From assembly GCA_021018995.1 (NCBI GenBank), contig CM037587.1, forward strand, positions 15,625,366 through 15,689,365: a DNA stretch of 64,000 nt, read 5' to 3'. Below the pieces are notes generated by a model, which worked only from the letters and a program-made list of their open reading frames with translations, had not been told where the DNA came from and made no database searches. The position numbers were made by a program, and so were the translations under genes. Origin of the DNA: Chloranthus sessilifolius. Its lineage: Eukaryota; Streptophyta; Magnoliopsida; Chloranthales; Chloranthaceae. Below are positions 2,473-58,140 of the stretch, piece by piece; positions within the stretch are counted from its first letter, which is position 1, and the number at the start of each line of letters is the position of its first letter.

Positions 2473-2869
2473 ATGTTTTCATTCGTTTGAGAATATGTAA
2501 TTACGGGTACTATGAAGGCTATGTATGTTTTCTTTTTTTTGAGATATTTAGATTTCAAACAATATTTGAGCAACTTTTCGCTGAACTCTTGATTGATGAA
2601 ACTAGGGATGTATGGAAACCTAAACGAGCAAGAAGGTACCCAGAAACATCTCTGGTCTCGCTCGAGCGACCACTTGTGTTCGCTCGAGCGAACTACATAA
2701 AATTCAAATCTTCTTCTCGCTTGAGCAAGGTCTAGTGACCGCTCGAGCGAGGTCTTGAACCGCTCGAGCGAGGCATTATAACCGCTCAAGCGAGGATATA
2801 GTATATGATAAAAACTAGTTCTGTTCTCGCTCGAGCGAGAACAGATGACCGCTCGAGCGAGGCGGAACT
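2473..2869 (+). repeat. TCGCTCGAGCGA palindrome array between pol and accessory gene (E1)
   Basis: From 2650 to 2866 there are about eight copies of a palindrome with core TCGCTCGAGCGA. Some keep longer symmetry (TTCGCTCGAGCGAA) and some have decayed by C-to-T (GCTTGAGC, GCTCAAGC). The rest of the stretch is unremarkable A/T-rich spacer after the pol stop. The array stops a few bases before the TATA box of the accessory gene. The same motif forms the LTR array of this element (5177-5430) and both equivalent arrays in E6, so it is family-specific. Confidence 0.9.
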
Positions 2870-2876
2870 ATAAATA
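2868..2876 (+). promoter_or_regulatory. TATA box of E1 accessory gene
   Basis: CTATAAATA lies directly after the last palindrome and about 200 bases before the accessory ATG at 3076. E6 has CTATATATAG at the equivalent place (minus strand, 48268-48277). Its position in both copies suggests the accessory gene has its own promoter, separate from the LTR. No transcript evidence is available here. Confidence 0.6.
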
Positions 2877-3075
2877 TGGCAGAGGCAATGGCGCCTGTTC
2901 ATCTTCAAGCGAAAGGAAGAAGAGACGAACAAGGGGGTTAGGGCAAGCAATTTTCAATCTTTTCGATCCGTTTCCAGCCGGATTTCGACCATCTGATCCG
3001 TTAAGACTACTCTTTTAGGTAAAATCTACTCATCCCTAAAATTTTTCTTGTCTCTTTAAACCCTTTAAATACCAA

Positions 3076-4338
3076 ATGGCTTCAAGCCCAAACCCCCAAC
3101 CTAAGAGGCGTCAAAGAACAAAGCGCCACAAACCTCGCAACCATCATCAAACCCGCCCTCTGCTCCAATCACACTGGATGATTGGTGGGGAGCAAAAATT
3201 TTTGAAGCCGAATGGGAAATACATCCCTCTTGTTTCGGAGATCCGGCGTCCACCCAGTGGACATCGGACTTTATCACCAACAATCAGCTCAAGACCCTGC
3301 TTACGCCGTTCGGGGATCGATACTACCCGAGGCTAGTGAAACTGTTCTACCAGACCTTAAACATGAGCATCGATGAGGACGCCATACTTGTTACCATCGA
3401 TGGTAATGAGTTAATTTTCAGATGTGCCGACATTTCCTCAATCATGAAGTGTCCCCACATCTACACTCCTAGCCCACTCATCCTACCACCTTTTTCTGGG
3501 AACGTAGATTTCCCAACGATCATCTCCGACATCACTGGCGGTAGGTCCGCCTCGGGACAATCTATCACCCGGTCACAACTACCGCCGCGCATGTGGCTTT
3601 TAGACATTATCTTTAAAAAGAATTTGCACCCAACCGGCCATGACCAAGAACGCCGAGATGCGTTTTTGCGAGCACTACATACCGCATTTCACAATAGGTG
3701 GATCAACGCACCTATGGTTGTCATAAAAGGCATGGCGCATGCCTACAAAAGGAATGTAAGGGGTGCTGTCCCTCCACCAATCAACCGATTACCGTATGCA
3801 CGGTTGATTTCCCGACTTTTAGACTCACGAAATGGGAAGGGAGGATTTAGGATCCGGGAGGACGAGTTATTCCTCACCGACAACGTCGTCCCATACCTCG
3901 CCCAAGACTGGAGCCGAAACCTTAAGAGCCTCCAAACCCGGCGTCCGACAAGAAGAGAAGCAGGTCTCCCGATTAGCCACCCATCAAGCACCGGTAGGAC
4001 CGACTACCCCCTCTACCTCAGTTCCGCAGCCTATACCCACTACAGACACGGGCATGATGCGGGAGATCCTCCAGCAAGGGCGGGCGATCAGGTTGCATCA
4101 GAGGTTCCAGGAGGCGCTACTCATAGACCTCATGGGCCAGGCATACCCGCAGTCTTACATGCAGCGCGTAGGTGCCATGAGGGACGCTATTTTTGGAGCA
4201 TCTAGCTCCGGCCCGACTATGAGGAGCGCCACAGTGGGTACCACAGCCGTCACGGTGGACAATGGCGATGATGATGGCGAGGACGACGATGGCGAGGACT
4301 ACGACGACGACAACGACTATGAAGAGGATGAGGATTAG
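3076..4338 (+). pseudogene. E1 accessory gene, putative plant transposon protein type, acidic tail
   Basis: Extra gene of roughly 410 codons between the chromodomain and the 3' LTR, in sense orientation. It starts MASSPNPQPK with a basic, proline-rich N-terminus. After an early frameshift (about 3110) it continues with LDDWWGAKIFE and a globular region (3330-3930) containing KLFYQ, DEDAILVTIDGNE and HIYTPSPLILPPFSGN. This resembles the domain usually named putative plant transposon protein (my recollection of PF20167), often found as an extra gene in plant LTR elements. A second frameshift near 3940 leads to a C-terminal part ending in about 25 mostly Asp/Glu residues. E6 has a homologous copy on the minus strand (46803-48068). 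The biochemical function is unknown. Confidence 0.8.
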
Positions 4339-4658
4339 ATAGTAACAAACATTTGAACACTTGGCATGTAATATTTTGAAACTTTTGATATGTAGGTTAA
4401 AATTTTCTTCAAACTATCGTGACATGAATGTCACAAGGTTTTGTTTGGGTAGATGATAAATATTTATGGGATGAGATATCGATAATAATTTGGTTAATTG
4501 TTTTGTTTTTGTTGTATGAAAAATTGTGGGCATGACCAACACTCAAAATGCGCAATTTATGTAAATTTCGATTTGATATGCTAGTATGACGTAAGTGGTA
4601 CCTGGTTAAGAAAATAATATCGATTTTCGAGGGCGAAAATCTTATAAGTTGGGGTGAT
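4339..4658 (+). other. E1 3' untranslated region and polypurine tract
   Basis: A/T-rich stretch between the accessory stop and the LTR. It ends in ATAAGTTGGGGTGAT (4644-4658), the likely polypurine tract for plus-strand priming, placed directly before the TG of the LTR. A matching tract lies in E6 at 46454-46468 on the other strand. A short inverted pair, GTGACATGAATGTCAC, occurs near 4419-4434 and is partly kept in E6. Confidence 0.75.
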
Positions 4659-4798
4659 TGTCACAACCCAGATTTTTCACTGATTTGTGCACGGCACGCA
4701 TACACACATAGGTATATGTGTTTCACAAAGAGACCAAAACGACCCAAATACTTTAAGTGTGTACGTGGGAAACACACCAGTATATCCCAAAAATTTTA

Positions 4799-4808
4799 GA
4801 TATAAAAG
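4799..4808 (+). promoter_or_regulatory. Probable LTR TATA box (E1)
   Basis: GATATAAAAG about 140 bases into the LTR. The equivalent place in the E6 LTR has AGTATATAAGTG (minus strand, near 46310). If this is the promoter, U3 is very short and the palindrome array of the LTR lies downstream of the start site, in the transcribed leader. Confidence 0.5.
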
Positions 4809-5176
4809 TGAAGAAGAGAGAAAGGAGCCCTTACATAAATCTATTCTAACCTAAATAGAGAGAAGGAGAATATAGAGAGAAAGAAGAAAAGAGCCTGGTA
4901 GAGAACTAGGGTTCGTTGAGACTTAGGTCGGCAAAGGAGATCAGAGGAAACGACGGGAGGACGAATCAGGGAGGCCGGATATCCGAGTAGATATTCAAAT
5001 CATAAATCAGACCGGTGCGGTTTCATCGTCAGAGGTACGTTAAGGACATGATAGATGCCTAGGAATGTTTTAAGTAGTAGGAAAGAGGTTGGCTAAATGT
5101 TTCCTTGTATAAGATAAAGGGTAAATGATGAGTGGAAGCATATTCTCGATCTTGATCGAGGGACAAATCGTTGTTC

Positions 5177-5430
5177 CTCGCTCGCGCGGTCTAAAAAGGC
5201 TCGCTCGAGCGAGGATGAACAGATATAAGCATGACTCTAGGCTCGCTCGAGCGGTCCCTAAAACTAAAGGGGAGCTCGCTCGAGCGAGGGTCCACAGTCA
5301 TATTTCGAAAACTCATTTTAACCGCTCGAGCGACCTCAATTTAACCGCTCGAGCGAGGTCAATAGACCGCTCGAGCGAAGTCAAGTGACCGCTCGAGCGA
5401 GGATAATTGACCGTGCGAGCGAGGTCTGGT
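5177..5430 (+). repeat. Palindrome array in E1 LTR
   Basis: About nine copies of a near-palindrome with core CGCTCGAGCG. The first four have the form CTCGCTCGAGCGGT. The last five are its reverse complement, ACCGCTCGAGCGAGG, so the array is itself arranged as an inverted repeat. Spacing in the second half is about 22-24 bases. One copy has decayed to GTGCGAGCG. Confidence 0.9.
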
Positions 5431-6346
5431 GACCACTCAGATCTTGGTTTTTGTCGAATATGAGAACTTGGGGGTCATACACCCCAATGACTTTAGATTA
5501 TTCTAAAACTATTTTTAAAAAAATGTAGGTTGATGCGTTATAACCCTCTACGAGCAGGCATGCCTTGAGATTCGTCGAGGTAGGGAATATTCTCGAAACA
5601 TGTGCATTATTCTGTGAACTCATATGTGTAGTATAGTCTATTTAAATAGTGTATTCCATAAACCCTCATGATAAGGGCGTGTGTGTGTGTTCCAATGTGG
5701 AAAATCCTGAGGTCCCCAGGGGACGAAAGATAATGTGGTTCAATCAAAGAAAGGTGAAATAGAACCATGGGGCATCCCAGGGATGCGTAAGAAAACAAAC
5801 AGAGAAACAAAAATAACGTGATAAGGCCTAATGGGATATATTTAGCACAATCACGGTGAATAACTATATGTAAAGCACATTGATATTTTTATTATTTAAG
5901 GTTGATTAGAATACCCCACCGACGTAGCGGGATAACCACATCGACTCGGCGGATATCCGTGACTGCACGTGACCAATCATACATTTATAACACATCCGGG
6001 GATGTAGATTGAGAATAGACCCCACCGCCTATGAGAAATGGGTTGGCAAGATTCTAGGAATACACATAACAACTGTCTAGTTAGACGACGATTGTGGGTA
6101 TTCCATCGGGGCTCGATGCTATATTGCTCGAGGATTACTTAAGTTAAAATTTAAGTGATTAGGCCAAGTTCACAACCAAACTCATAAAGAGATGAAACAA
6201 AACTATGCTAAGTAGTGGTCGGAACCATTGGGTTACCCCTATTACTCAAATTGTTGTACATAAGTGTTTTCTTGAGAATTTTATGTTTGTTAAGTTACTG
6301 ACCTATGTGTGAAGGATGATCTATATGTTCTTTTGTTTTCCCTATG

Positions 6347-6388
6347 GAGCTAGGATGTAGCTCACCCCTTAGACTATACGTCGCAGGT
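6347..6388 (+). promoter_or_regulatory. Conserved LTR stem-loop block (E1 copy)
   Basis: GAGCTA-GGATG-TAGCTC can fold as a 6-bp stem with a 5-base loop. It is followed by CACCCCTTAGACTATACG and TCGCAGGT. The same block occurs in E2, E6 (both LTRs), E7 (both LTRs), E8 and, diverged, E9, always about 410-475 bases before the 3' end of the LTR. The role is unknown; a 3'-end, packaging or other RNA signal would fit its constancy. Confidence 0.7.
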
Positions 6389-6839
6389 CCAGGACTAGCG
6401 GCAGCAAGGACTTCGGGTGAAGTTAATCCAAGGGCATCGGTGTCCCTGCCCACAGAAGAGTCAGAACCTCCTCTTGAGGAATTTTTTTAGGAAACCCGCT
6501 GCATACTCAGAGAGTGAGTTGAGAGAATACTATGTATGGCTGGTATATCGAGCCTCTTTATTTAGAGTGTTTTAAATTTCTGCCTCTTGATAAGACGTCT
6601 AGGATGAATAATTTCAATTAAACATTTGGGTAAGTTCTTATGTCCATGAATTGGCATGGGACAAGGACAGCCTTGCGAGATCAACTATATTGTCTTTTAT
6701 TTCGATTTAGAGTAGTCGCATGTGCTTAAATTATAGTTTGGCTGTATATATCGACGAGTTATGATATGAAGTTAAGGCACGGCCTTGGAGGTCGTGCAGA
6801 TGGCACGGATTTCGGGATGCCGAATTTCAGGCTGTCACA

Positions 6840-8260: not shown

Positions 8261-8729
8261 TGTGACAGCCCGAATTTCAGTGCCCTGATACCCGTGCCAT
8301 TAGCACGATCCTCCAGACCGTGCCCCATAGATCTGAGCGAAACATTGGTATAGCAAGCAACATTTAAACAAGATAAGACAAATAACTGCACGATATGGAA
8401 ATAAATATGCTAATCTAGGCATAAACTCAAAAGACAGTTCTACTTTCATGCCGATGCATGAACAGAGAACTGATTCGAACCATCGGTGATAAACAGATCA
8501 CCTCAGATGGTTCACCAAAAGAATTATATCATTTAAATACATTGTTTCTCAAAATAAAGGCTTAACATACCAAGCCGCACAAAATGCTCTCAAAACTCTC
8601 CCTATCAAAGTACATAGTGAAGTCTCCTAGAAGAAGTCCTCGAGAGGAGGCTCTAGCTTGCCTCCGAGCACGAAGTCTAAATCCCTCGGATCAACATCTC
8701 CCGAAGCCTCTACGGCTACAAGCAAAGGA

Positions 8730-8771
8730 CCTGCGACGTATAGTCTAAAGGGTGAGCTACATCCTAGCTCA
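8730..8771 (-). promoter_or_regulatory. Conserved LTR stem-loop block (E2 copy)
   Basis: Reverse complement of the E1 block, with the stem GAGCTA/TAGCTC and GGATG loop intact, followed by CACCCTTTAGACTATACG and TCGCAGGT. It starts 469 bases from the LTR 3' tip, against 451 in E1. Confidence 0.7.
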
Positions 8772-9746
8772 ATAGGGAACAACACACTGAACATATAAGT
8801 CACATCCTCACATATATTTCATGATATTATTAACATGATGTATTTATGAACTTGCTGGGAAACAGTTTAAATGATTACAATATGCATTGAAGTTTTACTG
8901 GTGGTTTACATGTTACATTTATTATCAACTATTCATGAATTACACTGAATAAGCCTAAAGAAACTTAAATCTTCAACTTAAGTAATCCCAGAGCAATATA
9001 GCATCGAGCCCCGATGGAATACCCTCCATCATTGTCTAAATAGACAGTTGTCATGAATATATCACTTTGAATACTATCCAGGTCCCTTTCTCAAAGGCGA
9101 TGGGGTCTAATCTCATCTCAACATCCCTGGGATGTGCTACTGTGTATGGATAGACCGCCGTACCGGTGTACGAATTTGCCGCCGTACCGGTCACAGATAT
9201 TCTGCCGAGTCAGTCATGGGTATCCCGCCACGTCGATGGGGTATTTTGTTCAAACCTTGAATAACAAAAATATCAGGTGCTTTACATATAGTTATTCACC
9301 GTGTAGATGTGCTACTTTATATCAATTAGACCTTATCAGTCTTTGTTCAATCTTACTTTACAATCTCACTTACATCCCTGGGATGTCTAACTTACTCGCA
9401 TCACACTGATGCCTTTATCACTGTCTCATCCCCTGTGGATGTCTCATTTTCATATGCTTACTTGGTGTCACACACACACACTTGGAGATTATATGATTCA
9501 TTTCATTTTTATATCACTACATACATGCTCTTGTAATCAAAGTACATGTTCAAGGTGTTCTCTACCTCAAGTGTCTGATTGTCCAAGCATCATGGTCCCA
9601 CACGGCTCCTTATGCTTGCCTTAGCTAGTACCACCTATGGTACATCATAACGTATGCACAACATTAATAAGAATGCAATAGAAAAGGTCCAAGACCCTCC
9701 ATGAACCACAATGTTCAACTAAGAAGTCAACTCAAACTGCCAAAAT

Positions 9747-10142
9747 TGATTAATCGATCTCCAAAATCGATTAATCGAAACCCTAAATTGATTAATAGAT
9801 TCTCAATTTGATTAATCAAAATCCAAAATCGATTAATCGATCCCAAATCGATTAATCGAAAGTCCACAATCAATTAATCGATTCCCAAATCGATTAATCG
9901 AAATCCACAATCGATTAATCGATTCTCAAATCGATTAATCGATTTTTCAAAGCCTTATTTCTCCAGCCACTGGAGGTACTCAGTCGATTAGTCGAATTCT
10001 AAATCGATTAATCGAATTTCTAAATTGATTAATCGATTTCAAGATCGATTAATCGAACTCGGGCTTTTATGCTTTTTCAACTTCCAAACTAAAATCGATT
10101 AATCGATTCTCCAAATCGATTAATCAATCGATTAATCGATTT
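9747..10142 (-). repeat. TCGATTAATCGA palindrome array in E2 LTR
   Basis: About 17 copies of the perfect palindrome TCGATTAATCGA or one-base variants, roughly every 20 bases, interrupted near 9950-9985 and 10060-10090 by unrelated sequence. Variants (TTGATTAATCGA, TTGATTAATCAA) are mostly C-to-T or G-to-A. It lies about 600-990 bases from the LTR start, a place like that of the arrays in the E1/E6 and E8 LTRs, but the motif is different. Confidence 0.92.
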
Positions 10143-10738
10143 GGCCATAACTCAGCCCCTTTTCGGGTTGTTCGTCCAAATCTTTTTCTTCTTATTTTTC
10201 TATCATTTTCATCATTTTAATTCATCATTTACATCATCTATTGACTGAATTTAATCATCAAAACTCATGCATTTAAATCTAACAAAACTCATCTTAAATC
10301 AATCTCTTATAGAATGGATTGGTTAGTCTAATGGCTAGGGTTCCAGATGTTGCTCCAGTGATTCCAATCACGTTGAATCCGGCATTTATTGCTTGATCCC
10401 GTCTTAAATTCGCAATGTGCCACAACCTCCTTAGCATTCACCCTTCTCCTCTCTCTCTCTCTCTCTTCTTAACTTCTATCACCAACCAAACAAGAGAAAT
10501 AACTTCTCTTTAGGTTATTAAACCTTAGAACTCCTCTTGCTTTGGTGTTGAGCAGATACACCAGAGATAGGTATACGTGACCCTTAACTAACACCATACA
10601 CTATGCTTAGGGTCATACTACATCACAAAATACTTTCTTTCTTAAGTCTACTATTTGATCATCACTTGGTCAACCTACGACCAATCGGGCATGAATCCCA
10701 AGGTCACTGTTCATCGCTCAATTTTCGAGGATATTACA

Positions 10739-11991
10739 ACCAAAGCCAAAGGCAAGTCCCGTCATGATCTCAGACACCATTCCAACTTACTCCAACCCAT
10801 CACATAACCAAGATCTTCCAAAGAAAGAAATACGCCATCATTATCCCATCAAGACGTCAAAATAGCCAAGGAGTCATCAAACAGAAATGCCCCATCGCAT
10901 AACCACCAAGGCCCGTTGCAACCCACCACGACACACAACCAAGAGGGGAGACTCAACCAATGTCCCATCGTTAAATGCAGTGAGCCGAACCCCCCAAATG
11001 TCCCATCATATAATAGTCGCCAGACTCCATCACAACAGAAACATATGATCACCAACAGAAGAAAAGAGAAATTTCTTCGACGTCCCATTGCTCCCAACAA
11101 ATATCAAGTCTCGTCGCGAATATCTCATCAGGCGATCCGGACATCCCACTGTGCAATGAATTAGGAAAGTATCACCCCTTTGTTTTCTACTCGATATTCC
11201 TCATAAACTATAGTTAGCTAATATTAAGTCAAATATTTTCAAAACCCGTCTCTCTCGACTCGTGAATCACTATAGTCCTCCCACAAGAGACAATCATCAG
11301 TATTCACGAGAAGGTTAGACGGAGTATCCGACATACCAAGCATTATCTTGATAACCACACAAATGGTCGGGTCCACAAATCTCATTCCGGTGGATCTGCT
11401 CAACGATATCTTGGAAGCTACATTTGCCATTATTTTACCACAGAATTAATCCTAAGTTGAAAATCTCAAACTTTGGAAAAATGATAATAAATAAACCTCC
11501 TATCTATCAAAAATCTATCTCTCATCACCCCAATCCGTTCTCTCTCCTAGGAAATCGAATACTAAGTATACTCAACTTTGAGAAATCACTAGTGTCCACT
11601 GGAAAGGGACCCCTGACGCGCCATTGGTGTGAGCAATGACGCGGCCGATCTGACATGACTTGCGAAAGACTTCGCCACCATATTATATCATATTATCTGG
11701 TCACTTGACCTTATTTTTGGACATTCGTATGATGCCCCCCGGTACCTCAATTGCATCAATATCCCTCTATTTGACTGCCCCTTCCAGCAGGTCACGATAT
11801 GCGGAGGAATGCCACTTGCACCCTCATATTATCCATTAGCTTGTGCTAATGGATAACAAAGCCAAGCATTTTATGTCAGGTCTCCGGTTCATACTTGTGA
11901 TTTCCAAAGAAACAAGAAGGCACCTCAGAAGAGGGGTGTCTACTTCTTCGACGCATCCTTATTCCGCAAGGATGCACCGAAGAGGGGCATT
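10739..11991 (+). other. E3 internal 3' region, no recognisable gene
   Basis: Stretch leading to the polypurine tract of E3. I recognise no protein. From 10850 to 11160 the sequence is rich in CCCATC/CATC words, suggesting an old low-complexity or coding remnant. Near 11830 there is a hairpin, ATTAGC-TTGT-GCTAAT, and a larger one directly before the polypurine tract. It presumably belonged to a Tat-like element because the tract and LTR start match E4. Confidence 0.5.
11953..11991 (+). other. E3 hairpin and polypurine tract
   Basis: A perfect 8-bp stem, GCATCCTT and AAGGATGC around a 7-base loop (11953-11975), is followed at once by CGAAGAGGGGCATT and the LTR start TGTAGACACC. E4 has the same order: CGATCA/TGATCG stem (34521-34536), then CCAAAGAGGGGCATC, then TGTAGACACC. 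The hairpin sequence differs but the layout is kept. Confidence 0.7.
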
Positions 11992-13115: not shown

Positions 13116-14664
13116 TGTAGACACCCAAATTTGGCCCAAGGCCCGATCGAAACACATTTTGAGAGAGGTGCATTAGGAATCACCCTAAACCCTTAGGAAT
13201 CACCCTAGATCCCCTAGGAACCTACCTCGAACCGTTAGAAACCAACCCTGACCCTTAGAACCCTTTTCGAACCCTAACCTAACCTTCCCAGGCAATAAGG
13301 AGGAGGGGTGCACCAGAACTAGCTACGACCCTCTACAGTGACCAACTCTTATACCATTGAAGAGTAGAGGTCGTCAGCTTTCCAACGGTCCAATAATTGC
13401 CCCAATCAGAGGTATATATCAGAAGATATGGCAGTCCAAACCTGGAGGGTAGGAAGGTAATTTCGGGTAGGCCCCCTAGGGATTTGGCGCGACTATTAGT
13501 TGCGCCAGGCTATTTCTCCCCAGAAATGGCCTGGCACAACTAATAGTTGCGCCAAGGTTAAAAGGTGGCCCCCACCCCGCGAGCTAACTTCCAGGCAATG
13601 TCCTTCACTATTTTACTGTGCATTTGCCTGGCGCAACTATTAGTTGCACTAGGCATATGAACAGTAACTCTGGGAATTTATCCCAAAAATCGTGACTGGG
13701 GTTTGACTTGTTGACCGCCTCGACCTTTGGGGTGTATTTTGATAGTTTTGGTACACCCATTCTTTACCTATTTGCAACCCTCCAAGTGACCTAAAGCCTC
13801 ACCCCATCATCTACCATTAGAACCACCTTCACACCTTTTGAAGCTCTCAAAATCCTAAGAAACCTTAGATTTGAGATTACCTAATTGCTAACCTCAATTA
13901 GCATCTAAGTAGCCTCCTAATCCACTCTTTTCCTATAAATAGAGCCCCCCACCCCTTGGTTTAGGGGTTGAGAAATTTTCTTAAGAGAGAAAGAGCTCAA
14001 AGTGAGAAGTTCTTCCTCCCTTTTATGCACTATTTTTACCCAAATTTCAGAATCTCCCAACCTCATTTCAAGCTTGTTATTGCATCCAAAACCCTTAGCC
14101 TAGGTGTGTGTGATCCCCTAGCCCACCTTCCCTACTTCTTAGCTTTAAGTCTTAGGGGTTAGAATCCCGTTTTCCACCATACAAGGCTTTCAAGAGCTCA
14201 TCAAAGCAAGCCACGCAAGGCTCCTTTAAGGTGCTACAAGGGCCCGAGGGCTCCGGATCTCCCCTTTCTTCTCTTATCTCTTTTTAGCTCCCTCCATCCT
14301 CCCATTTGTGCCGTTACACCGTTGATTTTTCGGTAGGAACGAAGGGGCATAAATAGGATTCTAAGTCCTTATGGGTAAGAGGAAGCTATTTTCTTTTCTT
14401 TTAGTTCATTTTATTTTTATCCATTAGTAGAGACTGAGTTAAGCGAGTTGATCGGGTGCCTAACACCTTCTCGATTGATAACCGAAGCCCCTACCCAAGA
14501 GCCTTTAGTGTGGACCGGATTCAGAGTCCTATTTTTAGCACTTAGGTGCTCATAAAAATGAACTAGGTATCCCGGGACGCCGAAAGCTCCGGGTGGCGAC
14601 TCTATATTTTTAGTTTGAGAGCGCATCGTCGCAACGGGATCGCATCGATTCCTACGGTTGCACA
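13116..14664 (+). repeat. E4 5' LTR (1,549 bp)
   Basis: Starts TGTAGACACCC and ends GGTTGCACA next to the primer site. A TATA box (CTATAAATA) is at 13933-13941. About 300-440 bases upstream of the TATA box are three palindrome copies. The 3' LTR is about 95 bases longer, mainly from 36 bases near 34611 that this copy lacks and from extra palindrome sequence near 35010-35090. Between these indels the two LTRs align with few differences. Confidence 0.93.
13495..13654 (+). repeat. GGCGCAACTA...TAGTTGCGCC palindromes in E4 5' LTR
   Basis: Three copies at about 13495-13515, 13530-13556 and 13627-13654 of a near-perfect palindrome made of arms GGCGCAACTA and TAGTTGCGCC meeting at the centre. Single-base decay includes GGCGCGACTA and GGCACAACTA. 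The motif recurs in the leader, between the antisense genes, upstream of the second antisense gene and in the 3' LTR. Confidence 0.9.
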
Positions 14665-14666
14665 GA

Positions 14667-28304: not shown

Positions 28305-28480
28305 GCCAAACCTGGCGCAACTAATAGTTGCGCCAGCGCATTGCTATCCCCATTTTGGCCTGGCGCAACTAATAGTTGTGCCAGTGCATTACATCCCCAG
28401 TTTAGTCTGGCGTAACTATTAGTTGCGCCAGTGAAATTTCCCTGGCACTTTAGCCTAGCGCAACTAATAGTTGCGCCAGA
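28305..28480. repeat. Four E4 palindromes upstream of antisense gene 2
   Basis: Copies at about 28313-28335, 28361-28383, 28408-28430 and 28454-28476, spaced about 47 bases, each GGCGCAACTA/TAGTTGCGCC or one to two changes from it. On the minus strand they precede the antisense ATG by 165-335 bases, and a TATAT-like word lies between (about 28284). This resembles a promoter-proximal position. Confidence 0.88.
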
Positions 28481-32764: not shown

Positions 32765-32885
32765 AAACTGGCGCAACTAATAGTTGCGCAAATGTTTGTT
32801 ACCTTCCTTTGGCTTGGCGCAACTATTAGTTCGCCAGCTATTCCCCAGGATAATGGCTGGCGCGCAACTAATAGTTGCACGGGCA
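32765..32885. repeat. Three E4 palindromes upstream of antisense gene 1
   Basis: Copies at about 32769-32791, 32815-32836 and 32858-32881, again about 45 bases apart, all variants of the GGCGCAACTA/TAGTTGCGCC palindrome. The spacing and copy number resemble the group upstream of antisense gene 2, but here the array is about 1.4 kb from the ATG. Confidence 0.88.
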
Positions 32886-40758: not shown

Positions 40759-40960
40759 ATGGCAAAACCGATCGAACAAAATTAGTAATCGTTCGATCGA
40801 TTTTGCCCAATTAGGAAATCTATAGAGATGGGTTTCAGGGGAAATCGATCGAACAAAATTAGTGATCGTTCAATCGATTTTATCGAAGAAGAAAATCCGT
40901 GGAATTGTATCTCAGAGGAAATAGATCGAACGAAATTATTTAGTTCGATCAATTTTGGGA
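40759..40960 (+). repeat. CGATCGAAC hairpin array in E8
   Basis: Three units. The first pairs GGCAAAACCGATCGAAC (40763-40779) with GTTCGATCGATTTTGCC around a 13-base loop, with one mismatch. The others are at about 40849-40885 and 40918-40960 with shorter stems. The loop AAAATTAGTAATC is similar in two of the units. The same units appear in both E7 LTRs on the other strand. Confidence 0.88.
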
Positions 40961-42018
40961 AATCGTTCGATGGATTTGGCAAACTATTTGATCAATTTAA
41001 AATTGTTCGATTAGTTTGGGCTGATTCAGGCTTTTATTTGGTTTTATTTTATGAATGGTGATTAGGCTTCCGAACTCCTTGTTTTACACCTTTTATGATA
41101 TGTTGAATGTGTTTTGGCCATGCCTAGGTTTGAGCCGGACCTTGGGTGGTTGAGGTTAGCTCGGCTTGAGGAATTCTAGGAGTAAGTTCGTGTGAGGTAG
41201 GGAATACTTTGAATATGTACACTTGATTACGAAAGTATGTATGTAGTAATGTGATATGTATGTGTGTGTGTTGAGAGCATAGTTATGTGCTTGTATTTGG
41301 ATATTGAGTTAAGCATGTGAAATTAAGATGTATGTGTGTGTACACTAAATGAGAAACCATTAAACATATGAAATGTGACATCCCAGGGATGTATATGTGA
41401 TGTGAGCATGTCGGTGATGCAGATTATTATGATATATTTCTTTTGATGTGAACATTTAGGTGATGTAAAATGATGTGGACAAGACTTGAACAAAGCTTTG
41501 AATTATTTTATTTAGCACAATTTCACGGTGAATAACTATATGTATTTTGTACAATTGATTTGAGGTTCGAAGAATACCCCACCGATGCGGCGGTATAATC
41601 GTGACTGACTTGGCAGGATATCCATGACCAATATGGTGGAATATCCATACATCAGTTTGACATCCCAGGGTTGTATGTGAGTTTTATGTCCCGTTGCCTA
41701 TGTGAAAGGGACTTGGGTTGTGTTACATGAAAGATAGTCTGATTGGACGATGATGGAGGGTATTCCATCGGGGCTCAATGCTATATTGCTCAAAGATTAT
41801 TTAAGTTAATTGATTAAGTCTTGAGACTAGCCTTTCTGGTGTTATGTGAACAAGTTGAGAATAAGATAACATGTGTAGTGTAACAGATGCATTCAGTTCA
41901 TACTTTTAGTAACTTAAACGGTTTTCTAGTTGTTTTTCTATTGATAAATCATGTTTTGCTTATGTCATGGAATATGTGTGAGTAAGATAGCTTTACATGT
42001 TCAGATATATTCCCTATT

Positions 42019-44246: not shown

Positions 44247-46453
44247 TGTGACAGCCCAAATTTTGGCACCCCGAAATCCGTGCCATCAGCACGACCCTCA
44301 AGGCCGTGCCCTGGGTTCTTTACAAAACATTGGTATATACAAGCCAAAACTGTAATTAAGGTGCATGTAGCTACTCTAAATAAATTCTCATATAAAAATA
44401 ATCATGGTATCGAAAGGCAGTCCTTGTCCCATGCCAATTCATGGGCATAAGAACTTACCCAAACCATTGGTGATAACTGTTCATCCTAGACGTTTTATCA
44501 AAAGAAACGGTATTTAAATACATTCGAAATAAAGAGGCTTGACATACCAAGCCGTACCTAATACTCTCAACTCACTCTCAAAGTATGCAGTGGGTTTCCT
44601 AGAAGAATTCCTCAGGAGGAGGTTCTGACTCTTCCGTGGGCACGAAATCCGAATCCCCTGGATCAAGATTCTCCGAAGTCTCTCACGCCGCTAGTCCTGA
44701 CTCGCGACGAGAGTCTAAGGGGGGTGAGCTACATCCTAGCTCCGTAGGGAAACAAAAAGAACATATAGATTAACCTTCACACATATATCAGCAGTTTAAA
44801 AAGCATAATTTGTCGAGTAACACTTATGGAAAACAATTGAAATATCTGGAATAAAAATAATGATTTCGACTGTTACTCTGCATGATTTTGTTTAATCTCC
44901 TTACTAGTTTAGTTGTGAATTTGGCCTAATCACTTAAATCTTAACTTAAGTAGTCCCCGAGTAATATAGCATCGAGCCCCGATGGAATACCCGCCATCGT
45001 CGTCTAACTAGACAGTTGTTATATGTATTCCCTGGGAATACTGCCCAAGCCCCTTTCTCATAGGTGGCAGGGTCTAATCTTAGATCTACATCCCTGGGGT
45101 GTGCTATGAAAGTACGGATTTGCCGCCGTACCGCTCACGGATATCCTGCCGAGTTAGTCGTGGGTATCCCGCCACGTCGGTGGGGTATTCTAATCAAACC
45201 TTAAATAATAAAAATATCAAATGTGCTCTACATATAGTTATTCACCGTGATTGTGCTAATTATATTACATCAGGCTTTATCACATTACTTCCATTTCACT
45301 GTTAGTTTTCATCTGCATCCCTGGGATGCCCCTGATTTCCATCGCATCCTTTAGATGTTAACTTTATAATTTTTCGTCCCCTGGGGACCTCAAGACTATC
45401 ACGTTTGAAACTCACTCACACACCCTTTTTCATAATGATCATGCAGCATTTGACTATTTAAATGGATTACACTACATATATGAATTTGACGGAATAATGC
45501 ACATGTTTCAAGAATATTCCCTACCTCGACGAATTTCAAAGCACGCCTTCTCGTAGAGGTTTACACTTCACGATCATGCGTCAAACCTACATTTCAATGT
45601 AGCATATGCTTAGAAAGGTTACTAGAATCATTGGGGTGCACAACCCCCATGTTTCTTGTACCCATAATTTCAAGAACTGAGTGGTCACCGGACCTCGCTC
45701 GAGCGGTCACTTGACCTCGCTCGAGCGGTCACTTGACCTCGCTTGAGCGGTCACTTGACCTCGCTCGAGCGGTTAAATCGAGGTCGCTCGAGCGGTTAAA
45801 TCGAGCCACTGAAGCATTACTGGGGACCTCGCTCGAGCGAGCTTCCCTCTAGTTTTGGGGACCGCTCGAGCGAGCCTGTAGCTATATTTTTCCTATTCGC
45901 CTCGCCGAAGCGAGCCTTTAGACCGCTCGAGCGAGGAGCGATGATTTTTGCTCCTCGATCAGATCGAGAACACAATTTCTCCCTTCATTCAAACCTTAAC
46001 ATCATTAAAAACATTCAACCAACATTCTTCCTATTATTTAAAACATGCCTAAGCATCTATCATGCCTTTAACATACCTCCGACGATGAGTCTCGCGCAAG
46101 TTTGATTTAAGATTCGAAATTCTACTAGGCTAACAGGCCTCCAAGGTTGCTCCTCCAGCCTTTTCTCCAACTCTTCTGCCGATTTAAGTCCCAACGAAAC
46201 CCTAGTTCTTTACTAGGCTCTTCTTTTCTTTCTCTCTATATTCTCCTTCTCTCTATTTAGGTTAGAATAGAGTTACGCAAGGGCTCTTCTCTCCTCTCTC
46301 TTTCACTTATATACTTATAAGTTAGGGAAATACTAGTGTGTTTCCCACATACACACATAGTGTCTACAGTTTCGTTTTGGTTTCCTTGTGAAACACATAT
46401 ACATGTATATAGTGCATGACGTGCACGTATCCCAAAAATCTGGGGTTGTGACA
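44247..46453 (-). repeat. E6 3' LTR (2,207 bp)
   Basis: In element orientation begins TGTCACAACCC (46453) and ends GGGCTGTCACA (44247). It differs from the 5' LTR at scattered, mainly C/T sites, and visibly in the palindrome array, where one unit here reads CGCCTCGCCGAAGCGAGCC but is a full TCGCTCGAGCGA in the other LTR. Conserved stem-loop block at about 44701-44742. Confidence 0.93.
45690..45945 (-). repeat. Palindrome array in E6 3' LTR
   Basis: Starts with a strict tandem of four 22-bp units (GACCTCGCTCGAGCGGTCACTT), the third decayed at its CpG to GCTTGAGC, then five more spaced copies. Flanking TGACC/GGTCA extends each palindrome to about 20 bases. Confidence 0.92.
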
Positions 46454-46802: not shown

Positions 46803-48068
46803 TAGTCATCATCCTCCTCATAGTCGTCGTCGTCGTCGTCGGAGCCATCATCATCCTAGTAGTCCTCGTCATCCTCATCCTCGTTGTCCACCCTGATGGT
46901 CGTGGTACCCACTGTGGCGCTCCTCGTAGCAGAGCCGGAGCTAGACACTCCAAAAATAGCATCTTTCATGGCACCGACGCGCTGCATGTATGATTGCGGG
47001 TAAGCCTGGCCCATGAGGTCGATAAGTAGTGCCTCCTGGAACCTCTGATACAATTTGATCTCCTGCCCTTGCTGAAGGATCTCCCGCATCATGCCAGTGT
47101 CGGTAGTGGGTATGGGCTGTGGAACTGAGGTAGAGGGAGTGGTCGGTCCTGCCGGCGCTTGATGTGTGGTTTGTCGGGAGACCTGACGGTCTCTTTTCTT
47201 GTTGAGGCTGGTTTGTAGACTCTTTAGGTTGCGGCTCCAGTCTTGGGCGAGATAGGGGACGACGTTATAGGTGAGGAACAACTCGTCCTCCCGGATCTTA
47301 AATCCTCCCTTCCCATTCCGTGAGTCTAGGAGTCGAGAAATCAACCGAGCATATGGTAGTCGGTTGATGGGTGGAGGAACAGCACCCTTTACATTTCTTT
47401 TATAGGCATGCGCCATGCCTTTTATGATGATCATAGGTGCGTTGATCCACCTATTATGGAATGCGGTGTGTAGGGCCCGCAGAAATGCATCTCGGCGTTC
47501 TTGATCATGGCCGGTTGGGTGTAGATTCTTTTTGAAGATGACGTCTAGAAGCCACATACGCGGCGGTAGTTATGATCGAGTAATAGATTGTCCCGAAGCG
47601 GACATGCCGCCCGTGATATCAGAAATGATCGTTGGGAAATCGACGTTCCCAGAAAAAGGTGGTAGGATAAGTGGGCTAGGGGTGTAGATGTGGGGACATT
47701 TCATGACCGATGAAATTTCGGCACATCTAAAGATTATCTCATTACCATCGATTGTGACGAGGATAGCGTCCTCGTCCACGTTCAAGTTTAGGATTTGATA
47801 AAATAACTTCACAAGCCTCGGGTAATAACAATCCCCGAACGGCGTAAGCAGGGTCTTAAGATTGTTGTTGGTGAGGAAGTTTGATGTCCATTGGGTGGAC
47901 GTCGGATCCCCGAAACAGGAGGGATGTATATCCCATTCGGTTTCAAAAATTTTGGCCCCCCACCAATCATCTAGTGTGATCGGAGTGGAGGATGGGTTTG
48001 GTGATGGTTGTGAAGTTTGCGGCGCTTTGTTGCCGCTTCTTAGGTTGTGGATTTGGGCTTGAAGCCAT
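46803..48068 (-). pseudogene. E6 accessory gene, putative plant transposon protein type
   Basis: Homolog of the E1 accessory gene with ATG at 48068 (MASSPNPQPKKRQ). An early frameshift leads into LDDWWGAKIFE and the same globular domain (KLFYQILNLNVDEDAI, HIYTPSPLILPPFSGN, then MWLLDVIFKKNLHPTGHDQERRD split at a stop). The stop near 47575 is CAA-to-TAA relative to E1. A QTTHQAPAGPTTPSTSVPQP linker and an acidic tail of Asp/Glu follow, with one premature TAG at 46856 before the natural end near 46803. It has no transmembrane segment. The TATA box and palindromes lie upstream (48268-48470). Confidence 0.8.
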
Positions 48069-48277: not shown

Positions 48278-48280
48278 TCC

Positions 48281-48470
48281 CTCCTCGCTCGAGCGGTCGT
48301 TAGTTATCGCTCGAGCGAGCCCAGGACGCTTTCTTTTATATGTTATGGCCTCGCTCGAGCGGTCAAAATGCCTCGCTCGAGCGAGGAATAGCTATCGCTC
48401 GAGCGAGAGGAAGTCGTGATTTTATGTGGTTCGCTCGAGCGAACATAAGTGGTCGCTCGAGCGAGACCAG
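48281..48470 (-). repeat. Palindrome array upstream of E6 accessory gene
   Basis: Seven copies with TCGCTCGAGCGA core, at about 48283, 48305, 48350, 48371, 48393, 48428 and 48451, all intact in the core. One is a 16-bp perfect palindrome, GTTCGCTCGAGCGAAC. A T run (48489-48511) and a TA microsatellite (48595-48619) separate it from the end of pol. Confidence 0.92.
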
Positions 48471-48699
48471 AAACATTTTTCTGGTACCCTTTTTTTTTTT
48501 TTTTTTTTTTGCTCGTTTTCGGTTTCTAATCTCATTACTAGTTTTATTATATAAAAAGTTCAACGAAAAATGGTTCAATCATTGCTTGGAGTCAATATAT
48601 ATATATATATATATATATAATTTTAATCTTTCGAGAAAAAAAAAAACATATAGACTTCATACTACCCGCAATCACATATTCTCAATTGAATAAAACTAT

Positions 48700-52102: not shown

Positions 52103-52261
52103 CTATAATGTATACATATACGTACATAACATATACTTTATTTAAATTTTTTTTTTTTCTAACGCGCAACAACGGTTATATATATATTTGTCCTAATGAA
52201 CACACATTCTCTACCTAGAATTGTATTGAAATCGAAATTCTTTATTTAAAAGAAATCTCAC
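52103..52261 (-). other. Intron-like GT-AG segment at the E6 gag-protease junction
   Basis: On the minus strand the coding sequence ...IIQG is followed by GTGAGATTTC at 52261 and the segment ends ACATTATAG at 52103. Removing these 159 A/T-rich bases joins IIQ directly to GTLQIYEKG, which is the usual Tekay-type entry to protease. If it is retained, gag reads a few more codons (EISFK) and stops. The segment also has a T run and TATATATATA. Confidence 0.68.
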
Positions 52262-53608: not shown

Positions 53609-53728
53609 AACGGTCTGCATGAGAATCCATAGTCTCGTTAGCAAAAGTCCCTATATTCTGACGAGATGATAGCCAGAACTAGAAAGAAAGGCTTTGATAA
53701 AATTTCGACCCCAAAATTCATAATCAAG
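53609..53728 (-). other. Damaged E6 leader and primer site
   Basis: The expected primer-LTR junction is missing. GGCTTTGATA (about 53689-53698) is a remnant of the primer site complement, followed by about 30 bases that replace the last roughly 45 bases of the LTR before alignment resumes at 53729. The 3' LTR keeps this tip, so the damage happened after insertion. Confidence 0.7.
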
Positions 53729-55889
53729 ACGACCCTCAAGGCTGTGCCCTGGGTTCTTTACAAAACATTGGTATATACAAGCCAAAACTGTAATTAAGGT
53801 GCACGTAGCTACTCTAAACAAATTCTCATATAAAAATAATCATGGTATCGAAAGGCAGTCCTTGTCCCATGCCAATTCATGGGCATAAGAACTTACCCAA
53901 ACCATTGATGATAACTGTTCATCCTAGACATTTTATCAAAAGAAACGGTATTTAAATACATTCGAAATAAAGAGGCTTGACATACCAAGCCGTACCTAAT
54001 ACTCTCAACTCACTCTCAAAGTATGCAGTGGGTTTCCTAGAAGAATTCCTCAGGAGGAGGTTCTGACTCTTCCGTAAGCATAAATCCAAATCCTCGGATC
54101 GCTCCTGAAGTCTCCACGCCGCTTAGTCCCGGACTCGCGACGTATAGTCTAAGGGGGGTGAGCTATATCCTAGCTCCGTAGGGAAACAAAAAGAACATAT
54201 AGATTAACCTTCACACATATATCAGTAGTTTAAAAAGCATAATTTATCGAGTAACACTTATGGAAAACAATTGAAATATCTGGAATAAAAATAATGATTT
54301 TGACTGTTACTCTGCATGGTTTTGTTTAATCTCCTTACTGGTTTAGTTGTGAATTTGGCTTAATCACTTAAATCTTAACTTAAGTAGTCCCCGAGCAATA
54401 TAGCATCGAGCCCCGATGGAATACCCGCCATCGTCGTCTAACTAGACAGTTGTTATATGTATTCCCTAGGAATACTGCCCAAGCCCCTTTCTCATAGGTG
54501 GCAGGGTCTATTATTAGATCTACATCCTTGGGATGTGCTATGAAAGTACAGATTTGCCGCCGTACCGCTCATGGATATCCTGCCGAGTCAGTCGTGGGTA
54601 TCCCGCCACGTCGGTGGGGTATTCTAATCAAACCTTAAATAATAAAAATATCAAATGTGCTCTACATATAGTTATTCACCGTGATTGTGCTAATTATATT
54701 ACATCAGGCCTTATCACATTACTTCCGTTTCACTGTTAGTTTTCATCTGCATCCCTGGGATGCCCCTGATTTCCATCGCATCCTTTAGATGTTAACTTTA
54801 TAATTTTTCGTCCCCTGGGGACCTCAAGACTATCACGTTTGAAACTCACTCACACACCCTTTTTCATAATGATCATGCAGCATTTGACTATTTAAATGGA
54901 TTACACTACATATATGAATTTGACGGAATAATGCACATGTTTCAAGAAGATTCCCTACCTCGACGAATTTCAAAGCACGCCTTCTCGTAGAGGTTTACAC
55001 TTCACGATCATGCGTCAAACCTACATTTCAATGTAGCATATGCTTAGAAAGGTTACTAGAATCATTGGGGTGCACAACCCCCATGTTTCTTGTACCCATA
55101 ATTTCAAGAACTGAGTGGTCACCGGACCTCGCTCGAGCGGTCACTTGACCTCGCTCGAGCGGTCACTTGACCTCGCTTGAGCGGTCACTTGACCTCGCTC
55201 AAGCGGTTAAATCGAGGTCGCTTGAGCGGTTAAATCGAGCCACTGAAGCATTATTGGGGACCTCGCTCGAGCGAGCTTCCCTCTAGTTTTGGGGACCGCT
55301 CGAGCGAGCCCAGAGCTATATTTTTCCTATTCGTCCTCGCTCGAGCGAGCCCTTTAGACCGCTCGAGCGAGGAGCGATGATTTTTGCTCCTCGATCAGAT
55401 CGAGAACACAATTTCTCCCTTCATTCAAACCTTAACATCATTAAAAACATTCAACCAACATTCTTCCTATTATTTAAAACATGCCTAAGCATCTATCATG
55501 CCTTTAACATACCTCCGACGATGAGTCTCGCGCAAGTTTGATTTAAGATTCGAAATTCTACTAGGCTAACAGGCCTCCAAGGTTCCTCCTCCAGCCTTTC
55601 CTCCAACTCTTCTGCCGATTTAAGTCCCAACGAAACCCTAGTTCTTTACTAGGCTCTTCTTTTCTTTCTCTCTATATTCTCCTTCTCTCTATTTAGGTTA
55701 GAATAGAGTTACGCAAGGGCTCTTCTCTCCTCTCTCTTTCACTTATATACTTATAAGTTAGGAAAATACTAGTGTGTTTCCTACATACACACATAGTGTC
55801 TACGGTTTCATTTTGGTTTCCTTGTGAAACACATATACATGTATATAGTGCATGACGTGCACGTATCCCAAAAATCTGGGGTTGTGACA
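53729..55889 (-). repeat. E6 5' LTR, 3' tip lost
   Basis: Aligns with the E6 3' LTR from ACGACCCTCAAGG onward and ends (5' tip) at 55889. The palindrome array is at 55125-55375 with the same four-unit 22-bp tandem. The stem-loop block is at about 54135-54177 with one loop change (GGATA). The few differences between the LTRs suggest a fairly recent insertion. Confidence 0.92.
55125..55375 (-). repeat. Palindrome array in E6 5' LTR
   Basis: Same arrangement as 45690-45945. Two units here decayed (GCTCAAGCGG, GCTTGAGCGG) that are intact in the other LTR, while one that is broken there is intact here. The differences fall mainly at CpG positions. Confidence 0.92.
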
Positions 55890-56089
55890 CAATCTATGAT
55901 CTCGAACATCATAGCACTCTTCAATTTCCCAATCTGCAAGCCCCGTGTCCAAATAAAAGCTATACCTGTGACGTATAGTCAGAGGGTGAGCTACATCCTA
56001 GCTCATCAGAGGAAAATTCAATACTACTTCACATCTTATCATAAGGAAACATAGATTCAATGCTAAAATCAAACGTTTTCATATTAAAA

Positions 56090-57025
56090 AGCTGAAACTA
56101 ACTTCCAAGACACTTTTCTTATCAAACAGAACTGATTCAAATACATTTTCTTATCATGTCAAGCTGATTTCCAAAACACTACCTTATTCAACAAAATGGA
56201 TTTCAAAGACATTTCCTTAACACACCAAAACTGATTTCAAATATATTTTCATATCACACAACTGATTTCAAAATACTTCCTTATTACACAACACTGTTTT
56301 CATACACACATCCTTATTTCACAAAACTGATTTTGAAAAAACTTCCTTATTACACAAAATTGATTTCGAAAACACTTCCTTATTACACAAAACTGATTAT
56401 AAAAACACTTCCTCATCACACCAAAACTGATTCCAAGATATTTTCTTATAAAAATACTTCGCCTCAAAACACTTCCTTAACACACCCAAACTGATTCGAT
56501 TTCCGCCCCAGCGGCCCACTTAGTACTTATACTCCGCCCATAGCCGCTCACAACACACATAATCCGCCCATAACGGTCCACATACATATAATCTGCCCAT
56601 AGCGGTCCACATACCCATAATTCGCCCATAGCAGTCTACTTCAATCTCATGACTTATGGCTTGACTCACGAAGTATAATCCGAAAAGTACATAAAATCCC
56701 GTAAAAGCGGTCCAAGGGCATACATAATCACAACGAAGTCCAAAGGCGTACGTAAATCCTGCAAAAGCGGTCTAAGGGCGTACTTGAATCCCACAAAAGC
56801 AATCCAAGGGTGTACATAATCACAGCGAAGTTTAAGGGTGTACGTAAATCTCACAAAAGTTGTCTAAGGGCGTACATAGATACAAGATGTCCAAGGGCGT
56901 ACATGAATCACAACGAAGTCCAAAGGCATACATAAATCCCGCAAAAATGGTCCAAGGGCGTACATGAATCACAACAGAGTCCAAAGGCATACATAAATCC
57001 CGCGAAAGTAGTCCAAGGGTGTACA
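56090..57025 (-). repeat. Three adjacent minisatellites in E7 left LTR
   Basis: Block 1 (56090-56500): units of about 30-35 bases with AAACTGATTTCAAAACACTT and TCCTTATTACAC. Block 2 (56505-56640): about four units with CGCCCATAGCGGTCCACATA. Block 3 (56690-57025): about nine units of about 33 bases with CGCAAAAGCGGTCCAAGGGC and GTACATAAATCC. The other E7 LTR has the same three blocks in the same order (62180-63080). Confidence 0.9.
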
Positions 57026-57959
57026 TTCACGTAGATCTACAAGACTCCAAGATTTCGAGTTCACATTCTAGTTCAGATTCCTAAATCACAGTCCAAAGCT
57101 CACATTCCTGGTTCAAAGGTTTCAAAACTCACAATTTAAAGATCAAATTTAATTCAAATACCATAGTAAAAATTCTAGATTAAGTTCATAGTTCAAAATT
57201 CACATTTCGGACTCAAAAGATTTCAAATGCTAATTTACAAGGAGTTCAAGTTCTAATTTAAATCACTACCAAACTTATCATTTTTCATGCAAACATATTA
57301 AAAAACTATGAATCAAAGTCAAACATGTAAGTTTGTGTTGAAGTTTCCGTACACGTCCAATTAGATTCAAGCATCAATTTTAAATAACAACACTTCAAAT
57401 CACACTTATCATTTTCATTTGATTAAATAAAGGCATCTATGAATCAATTTCAAAAATATAATCGGATATTAAATTTCTCCTAACTTAACCCTTAAAGTTA
57501 TGCAAAACCAAGCAAAGTCCTATCGATGGCCACCGCCCTTAATCTACATCACAAGCACACAATGATTCATAAAGAATTAACTCTAATAATTGAATTTGAT
57601 GTAACTTCCTCCAAAATCTTGACTGTCAAAATTTTAGATTTGCAAAATTATTAATTCATAAAAGTTGTAGGTCTCATTGTTCTCTTTCCAACACCTCAAG
57701 AATCATATAAATTGTAGTTCAAAGTAAGTAGTTATGGCAAAAATACCGATGCCGTTTTGGCACTTCAGTCAAATATGTTAACTTAGAACTTGACTAACTT
57801 ATTACTACATGTTAACCTTTAAAATGATTGATTCACTAGTTTGTCAATTCATAAAAGTTGTAGAACATTCTGTCCTCTTTCCAACACCATAAGAATCATG
57901 GCAATCAGAGATCGGAGCGGAAAGTTATGATCAAAATACCAACATAATGTCGGCAAGCA

Positions 57960-58140
57960 TAGCCAAAATCGACGGAACGATTTCAAACCGATCGAACGGT
58001 TACTAATTTTGTTTGTAACGGTTTTTAAAACTGATCGAACGATTTTCAAACTGACTAGAAACATTTAGATTTCACTCTTGACAAAATCGTTCAATTGGTT
58101 ACTAATTTCGATCGGACGGTTTCGTCAGATTCTGCCCAAA
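57960..58140 (-). repeat. CGATCGAAC-type inverted units in E7 left LTR
   Basis: Two decayed units built from ACCGATCGAACGGTTACTAA and its inverse, like those in E8. The spacer CTAATTT is kept. A matching block lies at 63840-64000 in the other LTR. Confidence 0.8.

What the first reader, a model, noticed from the sequence alone, without database searches (positions are those of the whole stretch)
2650..58140. Every LTR family carries its own short-palindrome array
Different LTR families in the window hold arrays of short palindromes whose sequences are unrelated: TCGCTCGAGCGA (E1/E6), TCGATTAATCGA (E2), GGCGCAACTA/TAGTTGCGCC (E4), CGATCGAAC hairpins (E8/E7), GTGGAATT/AATTCCAC (E3) and AATCGT/ACGATT (E10). 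In the Tekay-like LTRs they start about 500-950 bases from the LTR 5' end, so the position is kept while the motif changes. Palindromy and repetition look like the conserved property, as if each family had its own recognition sequence. Known parallel: VANC anti-silencing proteins of VANDAL transposons in Arabidopsis act through family-specific short repeated motifs. That such a system exists here is inference.
Basis: partly seen in the sequence, partly recalled or inferred. Interest (0 to 1): 0.9.

Follow-up and report, generated by a model that had tools for sequence, protein, structure and literature searches.

The report
Palindrome arrays at retrotransposon promoters
In this plant genome several kinds of LTR retrotransposon carry rows of short mirror-symmetric DNA sites in their LTRs, and two of them carry the same sites again just before their extra genes, which suggests that one DNA-binding switch controls both, although the sites are not as private to each family as first thought.

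Summary
Partly right, with a stronger pattern behind it. Arrays are real in E1/E6, E2 and E4. E7/E8 repeat a near-palindrome; E3 and E10 are not supported.

Each supported motif also stands before an accessory gene. In E1/E6, and in an E2-family copy elsewhere (L025), the array ends 9 bp before a TATA box ahead of a Transposase_32-like ORF. In E4 it precedes two antisense plant-mobile-domain ORFs. Between E1 and E6, motif cores are 93-98% identical, spacers 71-79%. The ORF is under purifying selection (dN/dS 0.12).

Genome-wide exact counts against reversed controls: 30,274 vs 141 (E1), 241,617 vs 55 (E2), 9,336 vs 0 (E4).

Two claims fail. The Tekay motifs look like variants of one class, TCGNTNNANCGA. 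The E1 motif also occurs in repeats unrelated to E1, in 22 of 27 clusters 64-142 bp from a TATA box, so it is not private. Arm changes are not compensated.

Best reading: promoter operators for a dimeric activator, linking LTR and accessory-gene promoters. Closest known: Sirevirus repeats (Copia), reported as Sirevirus-specific; this extends the plan to Ty3/gypsy Tekay and Ogre-like elements.

The parts
2658..2860 (+). E1 internal array: 8 sites TCGCTCGAGCGA (up to 2 mismatches) upstream of the accessory ORF
2869..2876 (+). TATA box (TATAAATA) 9 bp after the last palindrome core
3105..4202 (+). E1 accessory ORF, weak Transposase_32 match (31 bits, cutoff 45); the ATG at 3076 lies in another frame
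4659..6839 (+). E1 3' LTR (Tekay-like)
5178..5400 (+). E1 LTR array, 8 sites
8261..10739 (-). E2 LTR (5' end inferred)
9746..10139 (-). E2 LTR array, 17 sites TCGATTAATCGA (up to 2 mismatches)
13116..14665 (+). E4 5' LTR (Ogre-like Tat element, 13116-36200)
13486..13650 (+). E4 5' LTR array, 3 sites of the 21-bp dyad, 284 bp upstream of TATAAATA at 13934
27122..28039 (-). E4 antisense accessory ORF A, plant mobile domain (54.3 bits, cutoff 34.9)
28314..28477 (-). E4 array A, 4 sites at 47-48 bp spacing, upstream of ORF A; TTATATG at 28281-28287
30179..31126 (-). E4 antisense accessory ORF B, plant mobile domain (66.8 bits)
32770..32881 (-). E4 array B, 3 sites (up to 4 mismatches), about 1.6 kb upstream of ORF B; intron between them and ATG at 31385 in another frame are inferred by eye
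34556..36200 (+). E4 3' LTR with array 34958-35186 (5 sites) upstream of TATAAATA at 35470
40768..40975 (+). E8 LTR array, near-palindrome YCGATCGAACGR, 7 copies
44247..46453 (-). E6 3' LTR with array 45695-45934 (8 sites)
46859..48067 (-). E6 accessory ORF, interrupted by one in-frame stop
48285..48464 (-). E6 internal array, 7 sites; TATATATA at 48269-48276, 9 bp after the last core
53696..55889 (-). E6 5' LTR with array 55129-55370 (9 sites)
57969..58120 (-). E7 LTR near-palindromes, same class as E8

Best explanation
The arrays are promoter operators: clusters of dyad binding sites for a dimeric, sequence-specific DNA-binding activator. Within an element the same site is placed at the LTR and at the promoter of the accessory gene (sense Transposase_32-like ORF in Tekay E1/E6 and the E2 family; two antisense plant-mobile-domain ORFs in Ogre-like E4), so one factor controls both. 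Shown: repetition, position, conservation of the sites, a 9 bp gap to TATA at the Tekay accessory promoters, and a motif that differs in step at LTR and accessory promoter between the E1 and E2 families. Inferred: promoter activity, protein binding, activation or anti-silencing, and who makes the protein.
For: Sites of the same motif in LTR and in front of the accessory ORF in E1, E6, E4 A and B. In blastn E4 A, B and LTR match each other within the arrays. E1 versus E6: core 93-98% identical, spacers 71-79%, CpGs inside the motif 92-100%, outside 58-79%. E2 versus L025 LTR: motif 94-96%, spacers 71-72%. An E2-family copy, L025, has 18 E2-motif sites (up to 2 mismatches) ending 9 bp before a TATA ahead of a Transposase_32-like ORF 38% identical to E1's over 192 residues, while its promoter flank is 85% identical to E1's and E6's over 321 bp. 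I expected this from the cluster positions listed, but did not note it down before fetching. 12 of 12 best-scoring E1-family loci (one is E1) carry the internal array, and 3 of 3 fetched at 75-76% identity. A 26-bp array-TATA junction occurs 419 times, reversed control 0; 20 of 30 accessory-ORF hits in the listed range have it 253-295 bp upstream. Both ORF A homologues in the listed range have an exact 21-mer 298 and 304 bp upstream. E1-motif clusters in other repeats: 23 of 27 have TATAWA within 180 bp, 37% for random placement. Accessory ORF dN/dS 0.118 (0.08-0.16), pol 0.102 (0.05-0.18).
Against: No binding, expression or methylation data. In Tekay LTRs the array is not next to a clear TATA; its place relative to the LTR start site is unknown. 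Of three E2-motif LTR pairs looked at, one has the internal array; L027 has the ORF but no array (a deletion relative to L025), L028 has neither. 10 of 30 ORF hits lack the exact 26-bp junction (at least L033 and L042 have altered versions). E7/E8 symmetry is imperfect. 4 of 27 clusters have no TATAWA near.
Confidence: 0.72

Rival explanations
1. Refinement A (VANC-like): the reader is the element's own accessory protein (Transposase_32-like or PMD), which binds its own promoter and the LTR in an autoregulatory or anti-silencing loop; families diverge by co-evolution of protein and site. Compatible with the best explanation.
For: Motif goes with the ORF lineage: ORFs 75-100% identical keep the E1 motif (15 of 15 loci), an ORF about 36-38% identical has another motif (1 locus). 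No ORF, no internal array in L028. ORF under purifying selection. Genes that lose expression in Arabidopsis mutants of the PMD proteins MAIN/MAIL1 are enriched for a promoter motif (PMC7156037, passages). VANC proteins act through short tandem motifs (PMC5735166, passages).
Against: The E1 motif clusters in repeats where no Transposase_32-like ORF was found (0 of 20 loci by tblastn; stretches of 9.9 kb, not whole elements). No DUF1985 match in these ORFs. The one structure model was unusable (mean pLDDT 37).
Confidence: 0.35
2. Refinement B (host factor): the readers are host transcription factors with a TCGNT...ANCGA site (and another for the E4 dyad); unrelated repeats converged on them or captured the module. 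Compatible with the best explanation.
For: Same motif in unrelated flanks; homologous flanks with different motif: E1/E6 vs E2 LTR, E1/E6 vs L025 promoter, L013/L019 vs L029, L022 vs L012. Near a TATAWA in 23 of 27 clusters.
Against: 241,617 exact E2 sites might titrate a host factor (inference); the 21-bp E4 dyad is long for an ordinary plant factor (recalled). No host factor with this site was identified or searched for in a motif library.
Confidence: 0.4
3. RNA hairpins: symmetry serves a transcript structure or is a source of small RNAs (a link discussed for maize Sirevirus LTRs, recalled).
For: Hairpin-forming arms are strongly over-represented in many of the same bins.
Against: No compensation between arms in 31, 17 and 14 sites, though much of this variation may be decay after insertion. 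Internal arrays lie upstream of the TATA and would not be in an accessory mRNA started there.
Confidence: 0.1
4. Neutral tandem-repeat expansion by slippage, with palindromy by chance.
For: Arrays are partly regular (20-22, 47-48 bp); for E1/E6 the repeat unit alone is only marginally more palindromic than a shuffled unit (P 0.03-0.07).
Against: Spacers diverge while motif cores and their CpGs stay; same motif at non-homologous promoters. In one search the E2 unit (P 0.0015) and E4 unit (0 of 2000) are exceptional, the 18 other units are not (P 0.18 or more).
Confidence: 0.05

Closest known systems
Repeated motifs (RM) of Sireviruses, Ty1/copia (Bousios et al. 2010, PMC2829016; sections 9 and 19 read, other passages seen)
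   Same: Per-element palindromes of 10-20 bp, many copies, in the upstream half of the LTR and again upstream of the extra (ENV) gene, absent there in elements without the gene; TATA shortly after the LTR cluster.
   Different: Copia, CGG-CCG core in 12 of 13, reported as Sirevirus-specific and absent from classic elements. Here Ty3/gypsy Tekay and Ogre-like elements, core TCGNT..ANCGA or a 21-bp dyad, antisense genes in E4, and one motif shared by unrelated repeats of one genome.
VANC anti-silencing proteins and motifs of VANDAL (PMC5735166, PMC10398659; passages)
   Same: Short repeated motifs in non-coding parts of an element that also carries an extra gene; motifs differ between families.
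   Different: VANC21 motif YAGTATTAY is described as arrayed in one orientation and is not palindromic; DNA transposon; VANC binding is proven, here it is not; no DUF1985 match.
Extra ORFs of plant Ty3/gypsy elements: PMD in Ogre, Transposase_28 in Retand (PMC6317226 passages, PMC11963269 section 11 part 1 and passages, PMC7264820 passages)
   Same: E4 has antisense PMD ORFs between pol and 3' LTR; an own promoter was reported for such an ORF (maize Grande gene23, as told in PMC7264820).
   Different: None of the passages seen links a shared palindrome to the LTR and the extra-ORF promoter; 'palindrom' occurs in PMC11963269 only in a reference title and not at all in PMC7264820.

Membership tests
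Sirevirus RM system | palindromic repeats clustered in the LTR | tested here: met
   for E1/E6, E2, E4
Sirevirus RM system | further copies upstream of the extra gene, none if the gene is absent | tested here: met
   E1, E6, E4 A/B, L025, L028 without gene and without array; exception L027, gene without array, a deletion relative to L025
Sirevirus RM system | CGG-CCG core | tested here: not met
   motif sequences
Sirevirus RM system | Ty1/copia Sirevirus host element | tested here: not met
   E1 chromodomain; E4 RT-type RNase H plus second RNase H, then integrase downstream
VANC/VANDAL anti-silencing | tandem short motifs in non-coding parts, diverging between families | tested here: met
VANC/VANDAL anti-silencing | VANC protein with DUF1985 | tested here: not met
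   Pfam scans of the window's accessory ORFs (to E 5) and of L025/L027 (to E 1): Transposase_32, PMD, DUF7745 (ORF A) and chance-level matches, no DUF1985; DUF1985 as the VANC domain is recalled, named once in PMC5735166 (one search counts it, passage not shown)
VANC/VANDAL anti-silencing | protein binds the motif and removes DNA methylation | not testable with these tools
   needs bench data
Ogre/Tat lineage (E4) | aRH between RH and INT, PMD extra ORF | tested here: met
   criteria from PMC6317226 passages; no tree was built
Tekay chromovirus (E1, E6) | chromodomain at integrase C-terminus | tested here: met
   E1 1987-2469 Chromo E 2e-7; not seen in the E6 ORF tested; Tekay rather than another chromovirus not tested by tree

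The most novel reading that the evidence does not exclude
Ty3/gypsy retrotransposons of this plant encode self-recognising regulators: each accessory protein reads a dyad code placed at its own promoter and at the LTR, the code is switched in step at both places, and other repeat families live off the same readers by carrying the sites. It would be a retrotransposon counterpart of VANC, reached in Tekay and Ogre-like lineages besides Sireviruses.
Probability: 0.28. Interest if true: 0.92.

Novelty: new variant of a known kind. Interest (0 to 1): 0.72.

Why it matters
Why plant LTR retrotransposons keep extra genes of unknown function is an old question. A site shared by the LTR and the extra gene's promoter gives a direct test: does the extra protein bind it? 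It also extends an arrangement reported as Sirevirus-specific to two Ty3/gypsy lineages, and the sharing of one site among unrelated repeats points to cross-family regulation or parasitism on a very large scale (241,617 exact E2 sites in 2.17 Gb).

Tried and rejected
Rejected: private unrelated motif per family; compensatory arms; E3 and E10 as palindrome arrays; E7/E8 as true palindromes. Led nowhere: protein searches for both accessory ORFs (no hit at E 0.001); PDB sequence searches (none, and one hit at E 0.17); viral contigs (no relative); PMD structure model unusable; a literature search for motif strings returned 447 papers, and the 15 listed looked unrelated by title; searches for palindromes in Tekay/Retand and for extra ORFs listed no paper that by title and abstract start makes this link, listings only. 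Never answered, so not known: how many sites of TCGTTNNAACGA the genome has and the DNA search with E1's leader.

Limits of the samples: L005-L024 come from one chromosome end (first listed hits, 0.28-5.12 Mb of C1), not a random sample; a random sample could not be fetched. The ORF search scored 112 of 47,551 first-look candidates, so it favours close relatives; the PMD search scored 129 of 11,840. Place lists are cut to the first places. In one search, 31 of 40 E1/E6 sites were used (E6 5' LTR left out) and 14 of 15 E4 sites. In one search the script read a wrong TATA for L036; the sequence shows 9 bp there too; L032 and L037 end in altered sites (10 and 8 bp). The single-linkage groups may chain distinct families. 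A repeat was taken as an LTR family only where a direct-repeat pair of 0.6-0.95 kb holds clusters in both members (L009, L014, L021, L024).
Full report
OBSERVATION. The window is nested plant LTR retrotransposons. E1 (7-6840, +, cut by the window edge) and E6 (44247-55889, -) are one Tekay-like family; E1 has a chromodomain. E2 (-, LTR 8261-10739) is a related family. E4 (13116-36200, +) has an RT-type RNase H, a second RNase H and an integrase in that order and two antisense plant-mobile-domain ORFs (66.8 and 54.3 bits, cutoff 34.9), which fits Ogre (criteria in PMC6317226). The arrays of E1/E6, E2 and E4 are real. The weaker points: E4 5' LTR is at chance in a plain count of perfect palindromes (79 of 200 shuffles), though its bin is listed and the 21-bp dyad never occurs in its 300 shuffles; E4 array B was not listed. 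E7/E8 repeat a near-palindrome without excess symmetry. E3 and E10 exceed shuffles for the stated motif but have no excess palindromes, and E10 is matched by the best k-mer of 16 of 300 shuffles.

SECOND PLACE. In E1 eight sites end 9 bp before TATAAATA, then a short leader and an ORF with a weak Transposase_32 match (31 bits, cutoff 45). E6 repeats this in mirror image with seven sites. In E4 array A lies 275 bp before PMD ORF A, and array B about 1.6 kb before PMD ORF B, across a likely intron (by eye); in blastn the E4 arrays match each other inside the arrays. E4's LTR arrays end 284 bp before a TATAAATA.

SELECTION. Between E1 and E6 the 10-bp core is 93-98% identical, spacers 71-79%; CpGs inside 92-100%, outside 58-79%, with motifs defined in one element only. 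Across 12 copies compared with E1's promoter, motif columns average 0.90, spacers 0.68, TATA 0.975 (Mann-Whitney P 0.004). E2 against L025 LTR: 94-96% versus 71-72%. The accessory ORF has dN/dS 0.118 (0.08-0.16), pol 0.102. Arms do not compensate.

TEST IN THE GENOME. Exact counts versus the reversed pattern: 30,274 vs 141, 241,617 vs 55, 9,336 vs 0. The listing for the E2 motif showed three clusters at C1:54.7-63.8 kb, so I expected an E1-like layout with the E2 motif (not noted before fetching). It was there: 18 sites, a 9 bp gap, TATATATATAAA, a splice-donor-like GTAAAA, and a Transposase_32-like ORF 38% identical to E1's over 192 residues. Of three E2-motif LTR pairs looked at (pairs inferred from the places), one has this internal array; L028 has no accessory ORF and no internal array in the 5.4 kb fetched; L027 has the ORF without array, by a deletion relative to L025. 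For E1's ORF, 12 of 12 loci fetched (the best-scoring; one is E1) have 3-9 internal sites and 3 of 3 at 75-76% identity have 7. The gap from last core to TATA is 9 bp in 11 of 13 promoters, E6 included. The 26-bp array-TATA junction occurs 419 times, control 0, and lies 253-295 bp before 20 of 30 ORF hits in the listed range. For E4, both ORF A homologues in the listed range have an exact 21-mer 298 and 304 bp upstream.

AGAINST PRIVACY. The first 20 places taken from the listing of the E1 motif hold 27 clusters of 2 or more sites; none has a blastn match over 150 bp to E1/E6/E2/E8 LTR or the E6 promoter, or a tblastn match to the ORF. With motifs masked, flanks fall into five groups: Tekay LTR, Tekay accessory promoter and three others, the E1 motif being in all five. 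In 23 of 27 clusters a TATAWA lies within 180 bp, in 22 of them at 64-142 bp; random placement 37%. Homologous flanks carry different motifs in four comparisons. In 286 kb the class TCGNTNNANCGA occurs 118 times, reversed control 0, and the 2-bp spacing of half-sites stands out, 118 against 3-17; most of this sequence was fetched because it holds two of these motifs, so the excess is largely built in, while the variety of half-sites (TCGCT, TCGAT, TCGTT) is not.

MECHANISM. Best: operator arrays for a dimeric activator that couple LTR and accessory promoters (0.72). Reader element-encoded (0.35) or host (0.40) is undecided; both are refinements. The Sirevirus repeats of 2010 have the same plan in Copia elements and were called Sirevirus-specific, so this is a new variant of a known kind. 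VANC is a functional analogy; DUF1985 was looked for by Pfam scan and not found.

Noticed in passing
E1 3105-4202 vs E6 46859-48067; pol E1 329-1096 vs E6: Synonymous divergence between E1 and E6 is 0.76 in the accessory ORF but 0.27 in pol: the 3' module is older, as if exchanged between families.
   Followed up: partly
L032, L037 internal arrays: Some sites read CGCCGGCG instead of CGCTCGAGCG, a shorter but still palindromic form; recombination, a motif shift or an assembly error.
   Followed up: no
L012:6278-6484: An array of TCGATCGATCGA sits where the homologous repeat L022 has TCGCTCGAGCGA.
   Followed up: partly
L014:4841-5161 and other sources: Another palindrome, CGATACGTATCG, occurs 9 times in 5 of 21 sources; not studied.
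   Followed up: no
window 33201-33800: Local excess of palindromes without a repeated motif, among them an 18-bp one at 33416.
   Followed up: partly
window 38580-38740: Short hairpins AATCGY..RCGATT recur in the E10 region by eye; 16 of 300 shuffles reach the count of the stated 6-mer.
   Followed up: partly
genome-wide accessory ORF hits: Many of the Transposase_32-like ORFs listed are open for about 420-440 codons with no stop inside, unlike the window's frame-shifted E1 copy.
   Followed up: no
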